A stretch of DNA of 24,605 bases, taken from IMG/VR virus record IMGVR_UViG_3300018077_000050, positions 1-24,605 of that record; one strand, given 5' to 3'. The DNA is from a virus. The position numbers and the translations under genes were made by a program. Positions 5,180-24,554 of this stretch are shown piece after piece; the stretch's first letter is position 1, and every line of letters begins with the position of its first letter. Below the pieces are notes generated by a model, which ran no database searches, was not told the origin of the DNA, and saw only the letters and a program-made list of their open reading frames with translations.

Positions 5180-5352
5180 TTTACAAAATAACTATAAAAC
5201 ATAGTACAAATTATGAGAATAGAACTAATAAGATATTAGTTGGTGCCAAAGAAATTGGTGAATCTGTTGGAGTTGCCCTTAAAAAAGCTAGAGATTTAGG
5301 TTGGAAAGAAGCTGTAGTAATTAGCTCGATTGAACTTAATGCCAAAAAATAA
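5176..5352 (+). CDS. 58-aa small phage protein, function unknown
   Basis: The ATG at 5176 overlaps the previous stop as ATGA and the frame runs 58 codons to TAA at 5350-5352, overlapping the portal start by 14 bases. The protein reads as a short beta-alpha-beta unit: MIYKITIKHS, a basic loop (NYENRTNKILVGAKEI), a helix (SVGVALKKARDLGW) and a strand (KEAVVISSIEL). No motif links it to a named family. Coding is supported because it fills the gap between two genes exactly, with coupled start and stop on both sides, and has plausible protein-like composition. Confidence 0.58.
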   Translation: MIYKITIKHSTNYENRTNKILVGAKEIGESVGVALKKARDLGWKEAVVISSIELNAKK

Positions 5353-7795
5353 AGAAGTCTCTGAAGATATTCAGAATCTTCTAAAACAAGTTGCTGACCA
5401 CTTCGATAATGAGGACAAGTCCGTTCGTGAGAGACAGATAAGGGTATGGAGGCAGATTAAGCTATATTGGAATAATATTAGTAACATTTGGTATAGTGAG
5501 GTTGCTCATGATTGGCGCATCTGGCAAAACGATGGAAATAATACTGATGATGAATCAGCCTACTATGATAAGAATGTCAATGTATTCAGAGCATATCTGG
5601 AATCAATCATTGCAGCATTATCAGTTAGCGTTCCAGCAATTAAATGTTCTCCAGATGATGCAGATGAGCCTCTTGACATTCAAACTGCTAAAGCTGGAGA
5701 TAGAATTGCAGAGTTAATTTCAAAGCATAATGATGTAACTTTACTATGGCTTCATGCTCTTTATATCTTCTGCACAGAAGGAATGGTAGCTTGTTATTCG
5801 TATCCTAAGTCTGATGAGAAGTATGGAACTTATGAAAAGAAAGAGTATAAGGAAGAATCAGAAGAAACATATCTCTGTCCAGAATGTGGTGATAGAATTG
5901 AAGACCAACTAATTGAACAAGCAAGACAGCAATCATTAATTAACCAAGAACAGCAGCAAATGTTTCAGGCTCAAGAAATTCCACTAGGAGGACAAGGGCA
6001 ACTAAATCCTGAGCAACAGCAACAACAGATTATTCCACAGCAGCCAGCAGACCAAGATTTCACAAATCAGATACTAGATGAGTACATGCCAGATGATTCT
6101 GATATTGATTTACAGAATATAGTCTTAAATGAAGATGAGATTATTTGTCCTGCTTGTGGTGCATGGCTTGACCCAAATTTAGAAAAAGAAACTGTAGTTA
6201 TTACACGTCTTGTAGGAGTTACTACTAAGCCAAAGAGCCGTCAATGTATGGAAGTATATGGTGGCTTATATGTAAAAATTCCATGTTATGCAATGAAACA
6301 GGCTGATATTCCATATTTAAGATTCTCATATGAAACTCATTTTGCTAATGTAATTGAGACTTATCCTGAATTGTATGATAATATTAGAGGTCAAACTAAA
6401 TCAGCTCCTAATACTGGAGTATATGATGTTTATGAAGCATGGGGTAGATTATCTCCACAATACTATGGTGAATTTCCAATAAATAATGTTACTGTCAATA
6501 ATTATTGGTTTAGGCCAGCCGCTTTTAATGTTCTTCAAGAGGAAGAAGCAGAAAAATTAAAAAGGAAATTTCCTAATGGTTGTAAGTATGTTAAGGTAAA
6601 TGAATGCTTTGCTGAAGCAGAAAATGAAGCTTTGGATGATTGTTGGACCCTTACTCATAATCCTCTTTCTGATTATTTGCAGCATGACCCTCTTGGCCTA
6701 TTGCTCGTATCAGTTCAAGATATTACTCAGGAAATTATCTCATTAGTTCTTCAGACTATTGAGCATGGTATTGGCCAAACATTTGCTGACCCTGCTGTGT
6801 TAGATTTTAATGCTTATAAGCAAGCAGAAGTTAGACCCGGAGATATTTTTCCAACTAAACAAGCAACTGGAAAGAATATTGGTGAGGGTTTTTATGAAAT
6901 GAAAACTGCTACTCTCTCTGGCGAAATTTTGCCATTTGGGCAGAAGATTCAAGAGATGGGACAATTAGTTTCTGGTGCTACACCTAGCTTATTTGGTGGT
7001 CAGCTAGAGGGTTCAAGAACAGCCAGTGAATATTCAATGTCTCGTGCTCAAGCACTTCAGAGGCTTCAGACACCTTGGAAGATGTTAACGGCTTGGTGGA
7101 GACAAATATATGGAAAAGTAATTCCATCATTCATTAAGAATGTTCAAGAAGATGAGCGATTTACTAAAAAAGATAAAATGGGGAATTATTTTAATGTATT
7201 TATTCGTAAAGCTGAACTTCAAGGTAAACTGGGAGATATTGAATTAGAAGCTAGTGAACAACTACCTACAATGTGGAGTCAACAAAGAGATATTATTATG
7301 AAATTATTAGAAGCTGGTAATCCAGTAATTATGGAAACTATTAATTCTCCTGAAAATCGTTTACAGATTGCTCAAGCTTTGGGCTTATCTCAGTTTGTTA
7401 TTCCAGGTGAGGCTGATAGAGAGAAACAGTATGAGGAAATTAAAATCTTACTAAATTCTGAGCCAATGCCCAATCCGGAATTTAATCCTGAATTAGCAGC
7501 AATGGGAGAACCAATACAGCAAGAAATATCATCTGTTGAAATTGACCCATTAGTAGATAATCATCAGATAGAGGCTGAAATCTGTAAAATTTGGGCTGTA
7601 TCTGATGCTGGTCGTTTAGCAAAACTTGAAAATCCAATGGGTTATAAGAATGTATTATTACACATGCAAATGCATATGCAACAACTTATGATGATGGCCC
7701 CTCAAGCTCCTGTTGCTAGCAATGAGGAAGAGAAGAAACCAAAGCCAAAACAAGCAGCACAAAGAGGTTCTAATGTCGCTCAATTCTCTACTTGA
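5339..7795 (+). CDS. Portal protein with inserted split zinc ribbon
   Basis: 818 residues from the ATG at 5339; a TTG at 5330 is an alternative nine bases upstream, and neither has a clear ribosome binding site. Portal proteins form the dodecameric ring through which DNA enters and leaves the head. Support comes from the size, the place between TerL and scaffold/capsid genes, and typical helical and aromatic segments (RERQIRVWRQIKLYWNNI near the N-terminus; GGQLEGSRTASEYSMSRAQA with a following RLQTPWKML helix in the wing/stem half). The unusual part is a pair of CxxC knuckles, CPEC at 180-183 and CPAC at 270-273, separated by about 86 mostly Gln-rich residues. This looks like a zinc ribbon with a low-complexity insertion. 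The C-terminus is Met/Gln-rich then Lys-rich and may be disordered. Large portals are usual in podoviruses. Confidence 0.88.
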   Translation: MPKNKEVSEDIQNLLKQVADHFDNEDKSVRERQIRVWRQIKLYWNNISNIWYSEVAHDWRIWQNDGNNTDDESAYYDKNVNVFRAYLESIIAALSVSVPAIKCSPDDADEPLDIQTAKAGDRIAELISKHNDVTLLWLHALYIFCTEGMVACYSYPKSDEKYGTYEKKEYKEESEETYLCPECGDRIEDQLIEQARQQSLINQEQQQMFQAQEIPLGGQGQLNPEQQQQQIIPQQPADQDFTNQILDEYMPDDSDIDLQNIVLNEDEIICPACGAWLDPNLEKETVVITRLVGVTTKPKSRQCMEVYGGLYVKIPCYAMKQADIPYLRFSYETHFANVIETYPELYDNIRGQTKSAPNTGVYDVYEAWGRLSPQYYGEFPINNVTVNNYWFRPAAFNVLQEEEAEKLKRKFPNGCKYVKVNECFAEAENEALDDCWTLTHNPLSDYLQHDPLGLLLVSVQDITQEIISLVLQTIEHGIGQTFADPAVLDFNAYKQAEVRPGDIFPTKQATGKNIGEGFYEMKTATLSGEILPFGQKIQEMGQLVSGATPSLFGGQLEGSRTASEYSMSRAQALQRLQTPWKMLTAWWRQIYGKVIPSFIKNVQEDERFTKKDKMGNYFNVFIRKAELQGKLGDIELEASEQLPTMWSQQRDIIMKLLEAGNPVIMETINSPENRLQIAQALGLSQFVIPGEADREKQYEEIKILLNSEPMPNPEFNPELAAMGEPIQQEISSVEIDPLVDNHQIEAEICKIWAVSDAGRLAKLENPMGYKNVLLHMQMHMQQLMMMAPQAPVASNEEEKKPKPKQAAQRGSNVAQFST

Positions 7796-10997: not shown

Positions 10998-11573
10998 ATG
11001 GAATTAGTTGAGACAATTAATCGTAGACTTCAAGAAGACTATGGTAAATTGGACGATTTAAGGCCATACTGGCGTATTTCTTGGTCAGAAGATGAATATG
11101 AAAAGCGTCTTACTAATTACACAGATGAAGGTTTTGAACTCATTTATCCTGAAGTTAGAACATTACCAAAGTATAAACAGTGGATTCAGAATAAGTACAT
11201 ATTAGAGAGATTGACGGCTGTTCCAGTTGATAACATGGTTGAGTTACCTTCTAGCGACTTGTCATATGAACCTGTTTGGGTGTTTGAAGATAAACATGGA
11301 AATGCCCTGCCCCCCCGTTGGGATGTTATTCAATTAATTATTAAATCTGTGCATGATGCACAAGGATATAAAGGTGTAAGATATAAAGACCCATATTCAG
11401 ACCCAAAGACTGCATTAGATGTTAAAAAGAAAGAGATATTGGATATGGAAACTGCATTATTTGGTAATGAGTCAGCAGTAGGGGATGCACTAGCTTACAG
11501 AGAAGGTGTAGGATATACGGGTCCAATAGCATTACCCAATTCTGAAAATGCTACAAAGACAAAAGGAAACTAG
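10998..11573 (+). CDS. Conserved-type phage protein of the head-completion region, function unknown
   Basis: 191 residues from the ATG at 10998 with AAGGAG at 10981-10986. The protein is acidic/aromatic and starts with a helical segment (ELVETINRRLQEDYGKLDD) followed by PYWRISWSEDEYEKR, then EVRTLPKYKQWIQNKYILERLTAVP. This string of motifs recurs, as far as I recall, in environmental phages next to the capsid gene, without an assigned role. The C-terminal third is Lys/Asp-rich and ends in a polar tail. It is probably a virion or assembly protein from its position. The ribosome binding site can form a short hairpin, GGAG(10983-10986) with CTCC(10991-10994), which could dampen translation. Confidence 0.75.
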   Translation: MELVETINRRLQEDYGKLDDLRPYWRISWSEDEYEKRLTNYTDEGFELIYPEVRTLPKYKQWIQNKYILERLTAVPVDNMVELPSSDLSYEPVWVFEDKHGNALPPRWDVIQLIIKSVHDAQGYKGVRYKDPYSDPKTALDVKKKEILDMETALFGNESAVGDALAYREGVGYTGPIALPNSENATKTKGN

Positions 11574-12277: not shown

Positions 12278-12520
12278 ATGTTAATACAATCTTCTTACGT
12301 TTTAGGAAAGCTAAAAAAGATAATAGATGAAACTAATATCTTAATCGAAAGTGAATTAGCTATTCCTACTGATAAGTTTACTACTGTAAAAGAGGCTTAC
12401 GATTTAATAAAAATCCTATCTAGCTTAAATGAGAGGTATGAGAGAATCTTAGTAGAGTGGCTAAATAATTCTAACAAATCAAATATAGAAATTATTATGG
12501 AAGAGAAAGATAATAAATAG
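12278..12520 (+). CDS. Small alpha-helical phage protein, function unknown
   Basis: 80 residues from the ATG at 12278, six bases after the previous stop. It reads as helix-rich (SSYVLGKLKKIIDETNILIESEL, then TTVKEAYDLIKILSSLNERYERILVEWLNN) with an acidic/basic tail. No Cys, no membrane segment and no recognised motif. Its TAG stop shares its last base with the GTG start of the connector gene, so translation is probably coupled. A chaperone or assembly role for the neighbouring connector is possible but not shown. Confidence 0.65.
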   Translation: MLIQSSYVLGKLKKIIDETNILIESELAIPTDKFTTVKEAYDLIKILSSLNERYERILVEWLNNSNKSNIEIIMEEKDNK

Positions 12521-13212
12521 TGTCAAAGCCATCTGAGATAATTGATATGGTTGCTAGCCTACAAAATGATACAGCGCAACAACTGTATACAGATGCAGCA
12601 TGTTTACCATATCTAAATATGGCTCTTGATGAATTGCAAGAGTTATATGAACTTAATAATATACCAGTAACAGATGTTGTTTCTGGAGTTCTTGACGTTC
12701 CAATAGCTGCTACTAGAATAGCTTATATTGGAACTTTACCAACTCTTCCACCTGATTTAATAGAAATTAGACAGTTATGGGAAAGTGATGATGGAACTTC
12801 TACATTCATTCCTATGGCTAAGAAAGATTTCATTCCACATAATTTGGAAGGAACTGATAGAAGTAGTTTTGGTATATGGTCGTGGATTGGCAATGAAATT
12901 AGATTGCTACCATGTGTCACACCGAAAGACTTGAAGTTAGATTATATTAGAACTTTATTTCTTACTCCATTGTTAATGACTCAAATAGAAATTGACATTC
13001 CAATTAAAGGAATTAAGTCTTATTTAGGATATAGAACTGGTGCTCTTTGTGCTGAGTTTATTGGTGAAAATAAAACAAGGGCTGATTCTCTAAATGTAGA
13101 TGCAACTATGGCATTAGATAGGGCATTAGGAATTAATGTAAAAGGTAAACAAGCAATTACTACACGTCGTAGACCTTTCATGGCCTCATTTAAGGCACGT
13201 AGACAATGGTAA
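12520..13212 (+). CDS. Head-tail connector/adaptor protein
   Basis: 230 residues from a GTG start at 12520. These proteins close the portal and link it to the tail. The sequence shows the helical opening typical of the family (LPYLNMALDELQELYELNNIPV), then a beta segment with LPTLPPDLIEIRQLWES, an FGIWSWIGNEIRLLP motif, YIRTLF, and the late helix region SYLGYRTGALCAEFIGENKTRAD followed by TTRRRPFMASFKARRQW. The combination of 'ALDEL...NIP', 'LPPDLIE...LWE', 'AEFIGEN.TRA' and a closing TRRRPF is one I recognise from adaptor/connector proteins of phages with short tails. Position right before the tail genes agrees. A gap of 58 bases follows, one of only two long gaps in the array. Confidence 0.78.
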   Translation: MSKPSEIIDMVASLQNDTAQQLYTDAACLPYLNMALDELQELYELNNIPVTDVVSGVLDVPIAATRIAYIGTLPTLPPDLIEIRQLWESDDGTSTFIPMAKKDFIPHNLEGTDRSSFGIWSWIGNEIRLLPCVTPKDLKLDYIRTLFLTPLLMTQIEIDIPIKGIKSYLGYRTGALCAEFIGENKTRADSLNVDATMALDRALGINVKGKQAITTRRRPFMASFKARRQW

Positions 13213-13217
13213 GCCTC

Positions 13218-13247
13218 TGGTTCTTATTCAATTCCGAATAAGGACTG
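13218..13247 (+). other. Intergenic hairpin downstream of the connector gene
   Basis: Arms 13220-13229 (GTTCTTATTC) and 13236-13245 (GAATAAGGAC) pair over ten positions with one G-U wobble and a six-base loop (AATTCC). It starts just after the connector stop. No T-run follows, so a classic intrinsic terminator is unlikely; an mRNA processing or stabilising hairpin, or partial attenuator, fits better. Sequence complementarity is directly visible; function is inferred. Confidence 0.6.
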
Positions 13248-13264
13248 GTCACTGGTGACTGGAG
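13244..13264 (+). repeat. Three tandem heptamers upstream of the tailspike-like gene
   Basis: ACTGGTC, ACTGGTG and ACTGGAG lie end to end at 13244, 13251 and 13258. The third contains most of the GGAGG ribosome binding site (13261-13265) for the start at 13271. The repeat may reflect slippage or a protein-binding array; its length is short enough that chance cannot be excluded. Confidence 0.5.
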
Positions 13265-13270
13265 GATAGA

Positions 13271-14182
13271 ATGACTATGCAAGGTTATTGGCGTGAAAAC
13301 AGACAAGAAAATAGAAGGGTAATTTTATCAGATTTTGGTGTTATTAACAATGTTTGGTATTTATTTCCTCAAGGTGGTGGACCACGAGGTTCATTTCTTA
13401 CATTTGCTGATTTAGCACAGAATTTGAAGAGTAGAGATTTATTTTATTTGTCTGGTGTATTAAAAGAACAGGCAGTTACACCACAGGATGTATTTGATGT
13501 AACTATTATGGGAGCCGCTAATAGGCCAAGACAAGCTACCGATGGTGGTGTTCCTACAGGTGGCGGAGCTTCTTGGTTAGCTCCTGCTTCACCAGTTGCT
13601 CTTACACCATTGCTAAAGATTAGAGAACAAGGTTGGACAATTGCTAATATTCAATTTGCTCCAGTTGCATCTTCTGCATGTGTTAGATTATCACGAGCTG
13701 AAATAGCAAGTGATATGGATGGTTCACATGCTACATTCTTGGAATGTTATTTCCTTGGTGGTGGTTCATCTGGTATTGGAATTGAAGATGTAGGAGGATG
13801 TGGCCAAGTACTGATTGATAATTGTAGATTTCAGTTACTCACTGGACATGCAATTAAAGGAATTAGTACTGGAATTGATGTTCCTACTGGTTGGAGAATC
13901 ACTAGGAATAGATTCTATGATAATACCAATGCAATTGGTATGTCTCTAAAAGAAGGTCTAGTAGACCACAACTATATTAGACAAACTGCTAATACTGCAG
14001 ATGATAAAGTTAACCTTGTCAAGGTAGCCGCTCAGGGGTCGCTCAATCAAGTGATTAGAAATACTTTCCCCGATGTTGCTGCTAACGTAACTATTGCAAA
14101 AGGATACAAACCTGGAACTACAGACGCTTGGAGAAATTGGGTAACTGATACTGCTGCGGACATTGTGACTGTTCCTGCTTAG
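13271..14182 (+). CDS. Beta-helix tailspike-like protein (pectin-lyase fold)
   Basis: 303 residues from the ATG at 13271 with GGAGG five bases upstream. The middle and end read as right-handed parallel beta-helix turns: GWTIANIQFAPVASSACVRLSR, GSHATFLECYFLGG, GQVLIDNCRFQLLTGHAIKG, GWRITRNRFYDNTNAIGM, EGLVDHNYIRQT. Turns of 20-30 residues with 'I.NC.F' and 'I..N.FYDN' are typical of the pectin-lyase-like fold used in phage tailspikes and fibres, which bind or cut host polysaccharide. No catalytic residues can be assigned with confidence, and the protein is short for a full tailspike. It is the only gene flanked on both sides by structured intergenic DNA (13218-13264 and 14191-14284), so it could be an exchangeable host-range cassette. 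Confidence 0.75.
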   Translation: MTMQGYWRENRQENRRVILSDFGVINNVWYLFPQGGGPRGSFLTFADLAQNLKSRDLFYLSGVLKEQAVTPQDVFDVTIMGAANRPRQATDGGVPTGGGASWLAPASPVALTPLLKIREQGWTIANIQFAPVASSACVRLSRAEIASDMDGSHATFLECYFLGGGSSGIGIEDVGGCGQVLIDNCRFQLLTGHAIKGISTGIDVPTGWRITRNRFYDNTNAIGMSLKEGLVDHNYIRQTANTADDKVNLVKVAAQGSLNQVIRNTFPDVAANVTIAKGYKPGTTDAWRNWVTDTAADIVTVPA

Positions 14183-14184
14183 TT

Positions 14185-14190
14185 AAAGGA
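14185..14190 (+). promoter_or_regulatory. Shine-Dalgarno site separated from its start codon by a structured element
   Basis: AAAGGA at 14185-14190 is the only good ribosome binding site before the start at 14290. The bases just before that ATG (14285-14289, ATAAT) and the 15 bases before them carry none. The intervening 94 bases fold on themselves, which would leave a five-base spacer. It also lies four bases before an ATG at 14195 that opens a nine-codon frame, so a leader-peptide role is an alternative. Confidence 0.5.
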
Positions 14191-14284
14191 ATTAATGGGG
14201 CTAGAGTCTGTGGGAAGCTATTAATCTGATAATTCTGTCAGATTAATATTGGCTATGTAGGAAGCCGTCTCTAGCTCCATTAAT
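14191..14284 (+). ncRNA. Structured intergenic RNA element (16-bp closing stem, inner hairpins)
   Basis: Positions 14191-14206 pair with 14269-14284 over 16 consecutive base pairs with a single G-U wobble. Inside, 14219-14229 pairs with 14238-14248 over 11 bases with an eight-base loop. A further GGCT/AGCC pairing (14251-14254 with 14263-14266) can form a small third hairpin or compete with an extension of the inner stem. The internal region holds two near-copies of GUNGGAAGC (14210-14218 and 14257-14265). It could be a cis-acting translation element, an RNA processing signal or a small inserted palindromic element. It does not match the core of the self-cleaving ribozymes I can recall. The pairing is directly visible; the function is inferred. 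Confidence 0.6.
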
Positions 14285-14289
14285 ATAAT

Positions 14290-15807
14290 ATGAGTCCATT
14301 AAGGGACCATGAACCAATCGTTATAGATAGCTTCAATGGCCTTTGGCAGCAAGGGGACATAGATAATACTCCTATAGACCATTTTACTAATACACGCAAT
14401 CTTAAGTCTGTTGGTTTATCAGCTATTGGAACTAGAGATGGTATTGGAATACATCAGAGTGTAGTAGTTCCATTATCTAACGTCAAAAGAACTTATAATT
14501 TTCCTACTGCTATTGGTAATACATTAATTGTTTTAGTAACAAATATTATTACTGGATTTGGTGAAATATACCATGTAGTAAATGAAAATACAGTATTTGG
14601 TCCATTATTAACTCTTAATGGAATGGAAGATTTCGCATTTTTACCATATGCAGGTAGAGGTTATATTTCTCCATTTAAGACATATGTAGTTGGTGATTTG
14701 AATGTTGAAAAAGGATTGCAAAATGAATTTCTTTATGTATATTTAGGTAATGGAACGGCTGCACGTAAAGCCGCTGGTAATCCATTATCAGGTGCATTAA
14801 CCATTGCTAATGGTGCGGCTGGAAATACAGACCCCGGTTTTCATTTATTTGCATTTGTAGCTGAAACTAATACTGGATATTTAACTCCACCAGGTGCTAT
14901 TACTGGATTTACTACAGTAGCAGCATCATCTGTTAGTTTTACTACAGTTCCAACATCAGGTAGTCCTACTATAGTTCGTAGACATTTAGTAGCCACTAAG
15001 GTGATTGCTAGTTACAATGGTAATCCTACTGGATACCAATTCTTTTTTGTTCCTAATGCCATTATTGAAAATAATACAGATGTTTTCTTAAATAACATAT
15101 CATTCTTTGATGCTGATTTGCTCGATGATGCTTCACACTTATTAGATAATTTCTCTGAGATTCCGGCTGGAGTTTCTCTTTGTCTTTATCATAATAGATT
15201 AATTCTTACTACTGCATTTAATGATATTTCAGTAGGATTAGGGTCTGCAATTGGTGAACCAGAAGCTATTTCACAGATTGATGGATTAATTGTAGTTCCT
15301 CCTGATGGTAATCCAATTACTAACTGTCAAGAATTAAGAGATATATTATATGTAATGAAACGTGCCAAGACTGTTTCATTCGTAGATAATGGTGATGAAC
15401 CTTCCTCTTGGCCTATGAATATTGTAGATTATGCACTTGGTTGTTCTGTTCATGGAATTGCTACTGTTATTGATTCTGGTTCCTCTTCTGTTGATTATCT
15501 TATTATTTGTACTTATCAAGGTGTATCCTTATTTAATGGTCGCTATATCACTCCAGAGCTAAGTTGGAAAATAGAAGATTTCTGGACAAGTCAAGATAGA
15601 AATGAATCTCGTAAAATTCAGATACTTAATGCGTCTATTCAGAAAGAATTGTATATAATTCTTCCTGATAGAAGACTATTAGTAGGTAACTATTCTAATG
15701 GAATGGACCAGAAGAGAATTAGGTGGAATGTCTGGTTCTTTGTAATGGGTGTAAATACTATTTCAATTGTTAATATTGATGATTTAATTTTTGGGGCTGA
15801 TTTGTAA
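14290..15807 (+). CDS. Tail nozzle/hub-like protein (beta-propeller type)
   Basis: 505 residues from the ATG at 14290. The N-terminus carries a signature I recognise from phage tail stabilisation/nozzle-type proteins: FNGLWQQGDIDNTPIDHFTN at 15-34, then NLKSVGLSAIGTRDGIG at 37-53. The rest is an all-beta sequence with recurrent short blades (FLYVYLGNGTAARKA, HLFAFVAETNTGYLTPPGAIT, LCLYHNRLILTTAFNDI, LRDILYVMKRAKTVSFVDNG, VDYLIICTYQGVSLFNGRYI, KELYIILPDRRLLVGNYSNG), suggesting a beta-propeller. In short-tailed phages such proteins form the tail tube end below the connector and guide DNA ejection. Translation probably depends on the upstream structured element, since no local ribosome binding site exists. 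The stop shares a base with the next start (TAATG). Confidence 0.75.
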   Translation: MSPLRDHEPIVIDSFNGLWQQGDIDNTPIDHFTNTRNLKSVGLSAIGTRDGIGIHQSVVVPLSNVKRTYNFPTAIGNTLIVLVTNIITGFGEIYHVVNENTVFGPLLTLNGMEDFAFLPYAGRGYISPFKTYVVGDLNVEKGLQNEFLYVYLGNGTAARKAAGNPLSGALTIANGAAGNTDPGFHLFAFVAETNTGYLTPPGAITGFTTVAASSVSFTTVPTSGSPTIVRRHLVATKVIASYNGNPTGYQFFFVPNAIIENNTDVFLNNISFFDADLLDDASHLLDNFSEIPAGVSLCLYHNRLILTTAFNDISVGLGSAIGEPEAISQIDGLIVVPPDGNPITNCQELRDILYVMKRAKTVSFVDNGDEPSSWPMNIVDYALGCSVHGIATVIDSGSSSVDYLIICTYQGVSLFNGRYITPELSWKIEDFWTSQDRNESRKIQILNASIQKELYIILPDRRLLVGNYSNGMDQKRIRWNVWFFVMGVNTISIVNIDDLIFGADL

Positions 15808-24450: not shown

Positions 24451-24471
24451 AGTAAATTTATGAGATTTTAG

Positions 24472-24554
24472 TGCGGGATGAGGGAGTCGAACCCCCACGG
24501 TATTTCTACCAAAGGATTTTAAGTCCTTTACGGCTGCCATTACGTCAATCCCGC
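24472..24554 (-). tRNA. tRNA-Leu (anticodon UAA)
   Basis: The minus strand folds as a class II tRNA. The seven-base acceptor arms are GCGGGAT and ATCCCGC (24548-24554 and 24473-24479). The anticodon stem is AAGGA/TCCTT with loop CTTAAAA, anticodon TAA at 24519-24521. A long variable arm has a GGTA/TACC stem, and the T loop is TTCGACT. The discriminator base is A (24472), as expected for leucine, and CCA is not encoded. It reads TTA and, by wobble, TTG. TTA is one of the commonest leucine codons in this AT-rich window, so it would aid late translation. It lies opposite to all the protein genes. Confidence 0.93.

What the first reader, a model, noticed from the sequence alone, without database searches (positions are those of the whole stretch)
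14183..14292. 94-nt folded RNA element splits a Shine-Dalgarno site from its start codon
The nozzle-like gene (ATG at 14290) has no ribosome binding site in its last 20 upstream bases. A good one, AAAGGA, lies at 14185-14190, and every base between 14191 and 14284 is enclosed by a 16-bp stem with one wobble. Folding the element, or deleting it, leaves AAAGGA plus five bases plus ATG, an ideal spacing. In T4, genes 25 and 38 use a hairpin to bring a distant Shine-Dalgarno site to the start codon. Here the insert is much larger and has inner hairpins, so it could also sense something (protein, temperature, metabolite) or be a palindromic insertion tolerated because it folds away.
Basis: partly seen in the sequence, partly recalled or inferred. 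Interest (0 to 1): 0.72.

Follow-up and report, generated by a model that had tools for sequence, protein, structure and literature searches.

The report
RNA hairpin splitting a start signal
In an environmental phage, a 94-base RNA hairpin sits exactly between a gene's ribosome-landing signal and its start codon, and relatives keep similar but unrelated hairpins in the same spot, so the phage probably uses RNA folding to bring the two signals together.

Summary
AAAGGA (14185-14190) is followed at once by a 94-nt element closed by a 16-bp stem with one wobble (14191-14206/14269-14284; -42.1 kcal/mol, z -6.4). It ends 5 nt before the nozzle ATG, which has no other SD.

In relative L091 the SD, stem and spacing persist. 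In the more distant L098, nine of 15 alignable outer-stem pairs differ on both sides yet still pair. Across about 190 junctions at two tail-gene sites in related contigs, most long gaps hold a stable hairpin, mostly unrelated in sequence, just before the ATG. Where the spacer after the hairpin lacks an SD, an SD core touches the stem's 5' foot in 8/34 independent cases (background 9/272, p 2.5e-5).

Best reading: a split ribosome-binding site working like T4 genes 25 and 38, but larger, branched and recurrent. Against universality: many sister hairpins have no SD core on either side and some look like terminators, so the hairpin may also serve an operon-level role. There are no expression data.

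Side find: a covarying three-way-junction RNA in front of the upstream cargo gene.

The parts
14185..14190 (+). Shine-Dalgarno sequence AAAGGA directly 5' of the stem
   Evidence: sequence; identical and in the same place in L091
14191..14206 (+). 5' arm of the 16-bp outer stem
   Evidence: pair probabilities 0.6-1.0 in long contexts
14269..14284 (+). 3' arm of the outer stem
   Evidence: compatible changes in L091, two-sided changes in L098
14219..14248 (+). inner 13-bp hairpin (14219-14231/14236-14248)
14251..14266 (+). inner 4-bp hairpin (14251-14254/14263-14266)
   Evidence: stem kept and loop changed in L091
14285..14289 (+). A/U-only spacer ATAAT without SD; TATAAT spans 14284-14289
14195..14224 (+). 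9-codon ORF (MGLESVGSY*) 4 nt after the same SD, buried in the stem; probably incidental
   Evidence: sequence; its ATG is buried in the fold; ATG kept but ORF length differs in L091
14290..15807 (+). tail nozzle gene controlled by the split site
   Evidence: conserved start; low-confidence model matches T7, P22, SU10 and PhiM1 tail chains
13271..14182 (+). upstream beta-helix (tailspike-like) cargo gene, ends 2 nt before the SD
   Evidence: Pfam Beta_helix E 2.8e-4, below the curated cut-off; model and fold search
13214..13273 (+). three-way-junction leader RNA of the cargo gene; P1 contains its SD (separate element, bracketing the same gene)

Best explanation
The 94-nt element is a structured spacer in a split ribosome-binding site. 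In the polycistronic mRNA it folds as a branched hairpin just after the cargo gene's stop codon. Folding removes 94 nt between AAAGGA and AUG 14290, leaves a 5-nt spacing, and lets a 30S subunit bind the SD and the start codon on either side of the stem. Folding also buries the competing AUG at 14195. Shown: the sequence anatomy, predicted stability, lack of another SD, persistence in L091, re-made pairing in L098, and enrichment of SD cores at the 5' foot of unrelated hairpins in relatives. Inferred: that ribosomes use this SD for the nozzle gene, and that hairpins first came to these junctions for an operon-level reason (after acquired cargo genes), the next gene's SD then being placed before or after them.
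For: Fold z -6.4; no other SD; SD and 5-nt spacing identical in L091, with 6 of 7 changed positions in scored pairs still pairing; L098 orthologous-site match E 7e-4 with 9 of 15 outer pairs changed on both sides and all 15 standard. In relatives, SD cores lie within 8 nt of the stem's 5' foot in 8/34 independent SD-less-spacer hairpins versus 9/272 upstream windows, p 2.5e-5; 11/35 with hand-trimmed boundaries, leaving 5-9 nt in all but one after removing the hairpin. Clear cases: L043 AAAGGAGG|hairpin|AATTGA-ATG, L051, L044, L104 (second site) and L129. T4 genes 38 and 25 show the mechanism exists and that destabilising the structure lowers initiation (PMC3014915).
Against: Many sister hairpins have no SD core on either side (L104, L123, L125, L163 at the nozzle; L161, L170 at the second site). 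The contrast with hairpins that do have a following SD is only marginal (2/20, p 0.07). Energy-based tests with shuffled flanks or decoy anti-SDs were weak. AGGA is predicted partly paired with the cargo gene's end in longer context. W versus L091 alone has no two-sided change. No expression or probing data.
Confidence: 0.6

Rival explanations
1. The hairpin is an operon-level element placed after acquired cargo genes: an RNA-processing site, an mRNA stabiliser or a worn-down transcription attenuator. The nozzle gene is translated by re-initiation or SD-independent loading at the A/U-rich spacer, and AAAGGA next to the stem is not essential.
For: Hairpins track long gaps, mostly after cargo genes, whether or not an SD touches them. 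15 of 59 have a T-rich tail, some terminator-like. In the family the nozzle start is usually coupled to the gene before it, often without a strong SD. By recall, T7 has a terminator after its capsid gene, ahead of its tail tube genes.
Against: This element has no T-tract (ATAATATAAT), and no terminator-like site was called there. SD cores are enriched exactly at the 5' foot.
Confidence: 0.27
2. AAAGGA serves the short ORF at 14195 (a leader peptide or decoy start). The stem then switches between the decoy start (unfolded) and the nozzle start (folded), for example by temperature or by ribosome load.
For: AAAGGA-4 nt-ATG in both the window and L091; that ATG is buried in the fold.
Against: ORF length and sequence are not conserved (9 against 16 codons), and most other split cases have no ATG at a usable distance after the SD. 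The stem is very stable, which makes thermal switching unlikely.
Confidence: 0.07
3. A palindromic mobile element (MITE-like) inserted between SD and ATG and tolerated because it folds away.
For: A 94-nt near-palindrome with ATTAAT at both ends, which could be a target duplication.
Against: Single copy in the record. In viral contigs the stem pair occurs only in L091's contig, at the same site. The 20 stretches in the genome collection share no inner 8-mer with it. Relatives keep a stem there while its sequence changes.
Confidence: 0.04

Closest known systems
Split ('accommodated') ribosome-binding sites of phage T4 genes 38 and 25 (Nivinskas et al. 1999; Malys and Nivinskas 2009; reviewed in PMC3014915)
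   Same: An SD too far from AUG is brought to a functional distance by an RNA structure lying between them; the structure is kept in close relatives.
   Different: T4 spacings are 22 nt reduced to 5, and 27 reduced to 11; here 99 nt are reduced to 5 by a branched 94-nt insert. No sequence relationship detected. Here unrelated hairpins recur at two gene junctions across many phages. Function not yet tested.
Intrinsic terminators between late phage genes (for example T7 T-phi, from recall)
   Same: A stable hairpin between late structural genes; several relatives of this element do have a T-tract.
   Different: This element is followed by ATAATATAAT and the start codon 5 nt later, with no T-tract.
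SD-sequestering RNA structures (for example T4 gene e, I-TevI and mobE leaders, in PMC3014915)
   Same: Phage RNA structure at a translation start.
   Different: Here SD and AUG lie outside the stem. The cargo gene's leader at 13214-13273 is the part that resembles this kind.

Membership tests
T4-type split ribosome-binding site | SD separated from AUG by more than the usual spacing, with no other SD | tested here: met
   99 nt from AAAGGA to ATG; anti-SD energy +0.4 in the last 20 nt
T4-type split ribosome-binding site | stable structure between SD and AUG that restores a functional spacing | tested here: met
   predicted 16-bp closing stem, z -6.4, 5 nt left
T4-type split ribosome-binding site | structure conserved in relatives | tested here: met
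   L091 and L098; only a few orthologous copies known
T4-type split ribosome-binding site | destabilising the structure lowers initiation | not testable with these tools
   needs a reporter or toeprint
Intrinsic terminator | G+C-rich stem followed at once by a T-tract | tested here: not met
   ATAATATAAT follows; no terminator-like site called at 14191-14289 on the + strand
Known Rfam family | match above the family's gathering score | tested here: not met
MITE-like mobile element | further copies in phage or host genomes | tested here: not met
   only at the orthologous site in L091; the true host is unknown

The most novel reading that the evidence does not exclude
A whole group of environmental phages uses evolvable hairpins as structured spacers inside ribosome-binding sites at cargo-insertion junctions. 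Acquired tailspike-like genes are bracketed by RNA modules, a three-way-junction leader that holds their own SD and a 3' hairpin that splits or precedes the next gene's SD, so that cargo can be exchanged while neighbouring genes keep their expression.
Probability: 0.3. Interest if true: 0.75.

Novelty: new variant of a known kind. Interest (0 to 1): 0.62.

Why it matters
Split ribosome-binding sites are, in the literature I could reach, a curiosity described for two T4 genes. Here dozens of natural hairpins of about 19-125 nt, many unrelated in sequence, stand just before orthologous start codons, so the rules of initiation across a folded spacer become directly testable with ready-made natural variants. 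It also warns gene finders that an SD can be cut off from its start codon by a large structured insert.

Tried and rejected
No relatives in 50,697 phage records by DNA or protein. Exact pieces of the element are absent from viral contigs. A single-sequence nozzle search found nothing; terminase and nozzle alignments did. Energy-based SD enrichment with shuffled flanks or decoy anti-SDs was inconclusive because the flanks are purine-rich, so exact SD cores with a positional background were used. W versus L091 alone has no two-sided changes. Known RNA family, mobile element and terminator were considered and not supported for this element. A promoter inside the element was considered: TATAAT at 14284-14289 would start transcription inside the gene, and the promoter scan found no excess. 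Literature searches found no report of this arrangement in such phages in the open library.

Full report
WHAT IS THERE. The window is a 24,605-base virus record. Its tail-gene order is an adaptor-like gene (12520-13212; weak SU10_adaptor Pfam match), a beta-helix cargo gene (13271-14182), the element, and a nozzle gene (14290-15807; its low-confidence model matches tail chains of T7, P22, SU10 and PhiM1 phages). AAAGGA occupies 14185-14190; bases 14191-14284 are closed by a 16-bp stem with one G-U; five A/U bases lead to ATG 14290. The fold is far better than dinucleotide shuffles (-42.1 versus -21.3 kcal/mol, z -6.4) and persists in longer contexts. Among the 30 starts scored, this one has the weakest anti-SD pairing in its last 20 nt; other weak starts mostly overlap or abut the previous gene, or are doubtful calls.

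The same AAAGGA stands 4 nt before ATG 14195, the start of a 9-codon ORF inside the 5' arm, so the SD is not an orphan in the linear sequence. A TATAAT lies at 14284-14289, but as a -10 box it would start transcription inside the nozzle gene. In longer context AGGA is predicted largely paired, by inspection with UUCCU at the cargo gene's end; a ribosome finishing that gene would free it.

RELATIVES. The terminase found 62 IMG/VR relatives; nozzle alignments gave two overlapping sets of 80 loci. Of 97 distinct nozzle junctions, 61 have the upstream gene within 14 nt of the start, and only one of these shows a comparable inverted repeat. Junctions with long gaps, usually after a cargo gene, mostly hold a strong hairpin ending a few nt before the ATG, and the hairpins are mostly unrelated in sequence. 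The same was found in front of the orthologue of window gene 10998-11573, where 94 distinct junctions were read; the window itself has no such hairpin there. The median z of 55 hairpins is -6.2 (mononucleotide shuffles). Upstream genes were called mechanically, and doubtful junctions were set aside by hand.

CONSERVATION OF THIS ELEMENT. L091 (73% nozzle identity) keeps SD, stem, spacing and inner hairpins; six of the seven changed positions within the 33 scored pairs keep pairing, and one breaks at a loop end. A covariance model built from these two finds L098 at the orthologous site (E 7e-4), where all 15 alignable outer pairs are standard and nine differ on both sides. That alignment is fitted to the structure, so common descent of the arms is not proven, only that a stem is kept. 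At the second site, L129 and L140 differ on both sides at 8 of 15 pairs with full pairing.

IS THE SD REALLY SPLIT? For hairpins whose spacer has no SD, I counted exact cores (AGGA, GGAG, GAGG) in the 8 nt touching the stem's 5' foot. With automatic boundaries and close homologues collapsed this gave 8 of 34, against 9 of 272 windows further upstream (p 2.5e-5). With a few boundaries trimmed by hand it gave 11 of 35 (p 6e-8), with 5-9 nt left in all but one case after removing the hairpin. When an SD follows the stem, the 5' foot carries a core in 2 of 20 (a marginal contrast, p 0.07). Without an SD after the stem the foot-to-ATG distance is typically 4-10 nt (median 7); with one it is 8-23. 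Energy tests with shuffled flanks or decoy anti-SD sequences were weak, so base composition contributes. The background windows are partly coding sequence, which is an imperfect control.

WHAT IT PROBABLY IS. T4 genes 38 and 25 establish that a structured spacer can join a distant SD to AUG and that destabilising it lowers initiation (PMC3014915). This element works like those, by inference, but is larger and branched; no sequence relationship to them was detected. The important limit is that many sister hairpins have no SD core on either side and some have T-tracts, so a general reason for a hairpin after cargo genes (processing, stability, attenuation) probably also exists. I read the split as an accommodation: once a hairpin occupies the junction, the next gene's SD must lie before or after it, and this phage has it before.

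NEIGHBOURING RNA. In front of the cargo gene lies a three-way-junction RNA (13214-13273) whose closing helix contains the cargo gene's SD. Twenty-eight matches in 100 loci have 98.5% of cells paired, 9 of 15 pairs with two-sided changes, and a covariation score that none of 500 shuffles reached (independent MAFFT alignment). It also precedes genes with no detectable similarity to this cargo gene (L103, L105, L106, L156, L158, L165, L274). It has no Rfam match. A further short motif, GGGG-(N)GCGCAT-loop-ACGC, recurs near several tail-gene starts.

VERDICT. It is a new, larger and recurrent variant of a known kind.

Noticed in passing
window 13214-13273; model matches: A strongly covarying three-way-junction RNA (NCUCUGG-P2-CUGGU-P3-CUGGAG, then a short spacer and ATG) precedes the beta-helix cargo gene and unrelated cargo genes in relatives; its closing helix contains the SD. 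No Rfam match. It may deserve its own study as a new cis-regulatory RNA.
   Followed up: partly
L226:119, L231:207, L186:517, L216:250, L023:12454, L168:3964 and others: A short recurrent motif, GGGG-(N)GCG(C/T)AT-loop-ACGC, lies near tail-gene starts in many relatives, often as G-run, 5-6 bp hairpin, A/U spacer, ATG.
   Followed up: partly
L104 and L125 (nozzle), L135 (nozzle), L211 (second site): Several otherwise unrelated junction hairpins share the loop CTAATAA.
   Followed up: no
L110, L113, L116, L151, L107, L165, second site: A family of larger hairpins with an internal GGGAA-like loop and an SD after the stem; the window element also has GGGAA after its 5' arm.
   Followed up: no
window 24471-24554, minus strand: tRNA-Leu (TAA anticodon) at the end of the record.
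   Followed up: no
window 5330-7795: A large 821-residue ORF with zinc-ribbon-like CxxC pairs, weak Pfam matches only; its start codon call is doubtful.
   Followed up: no
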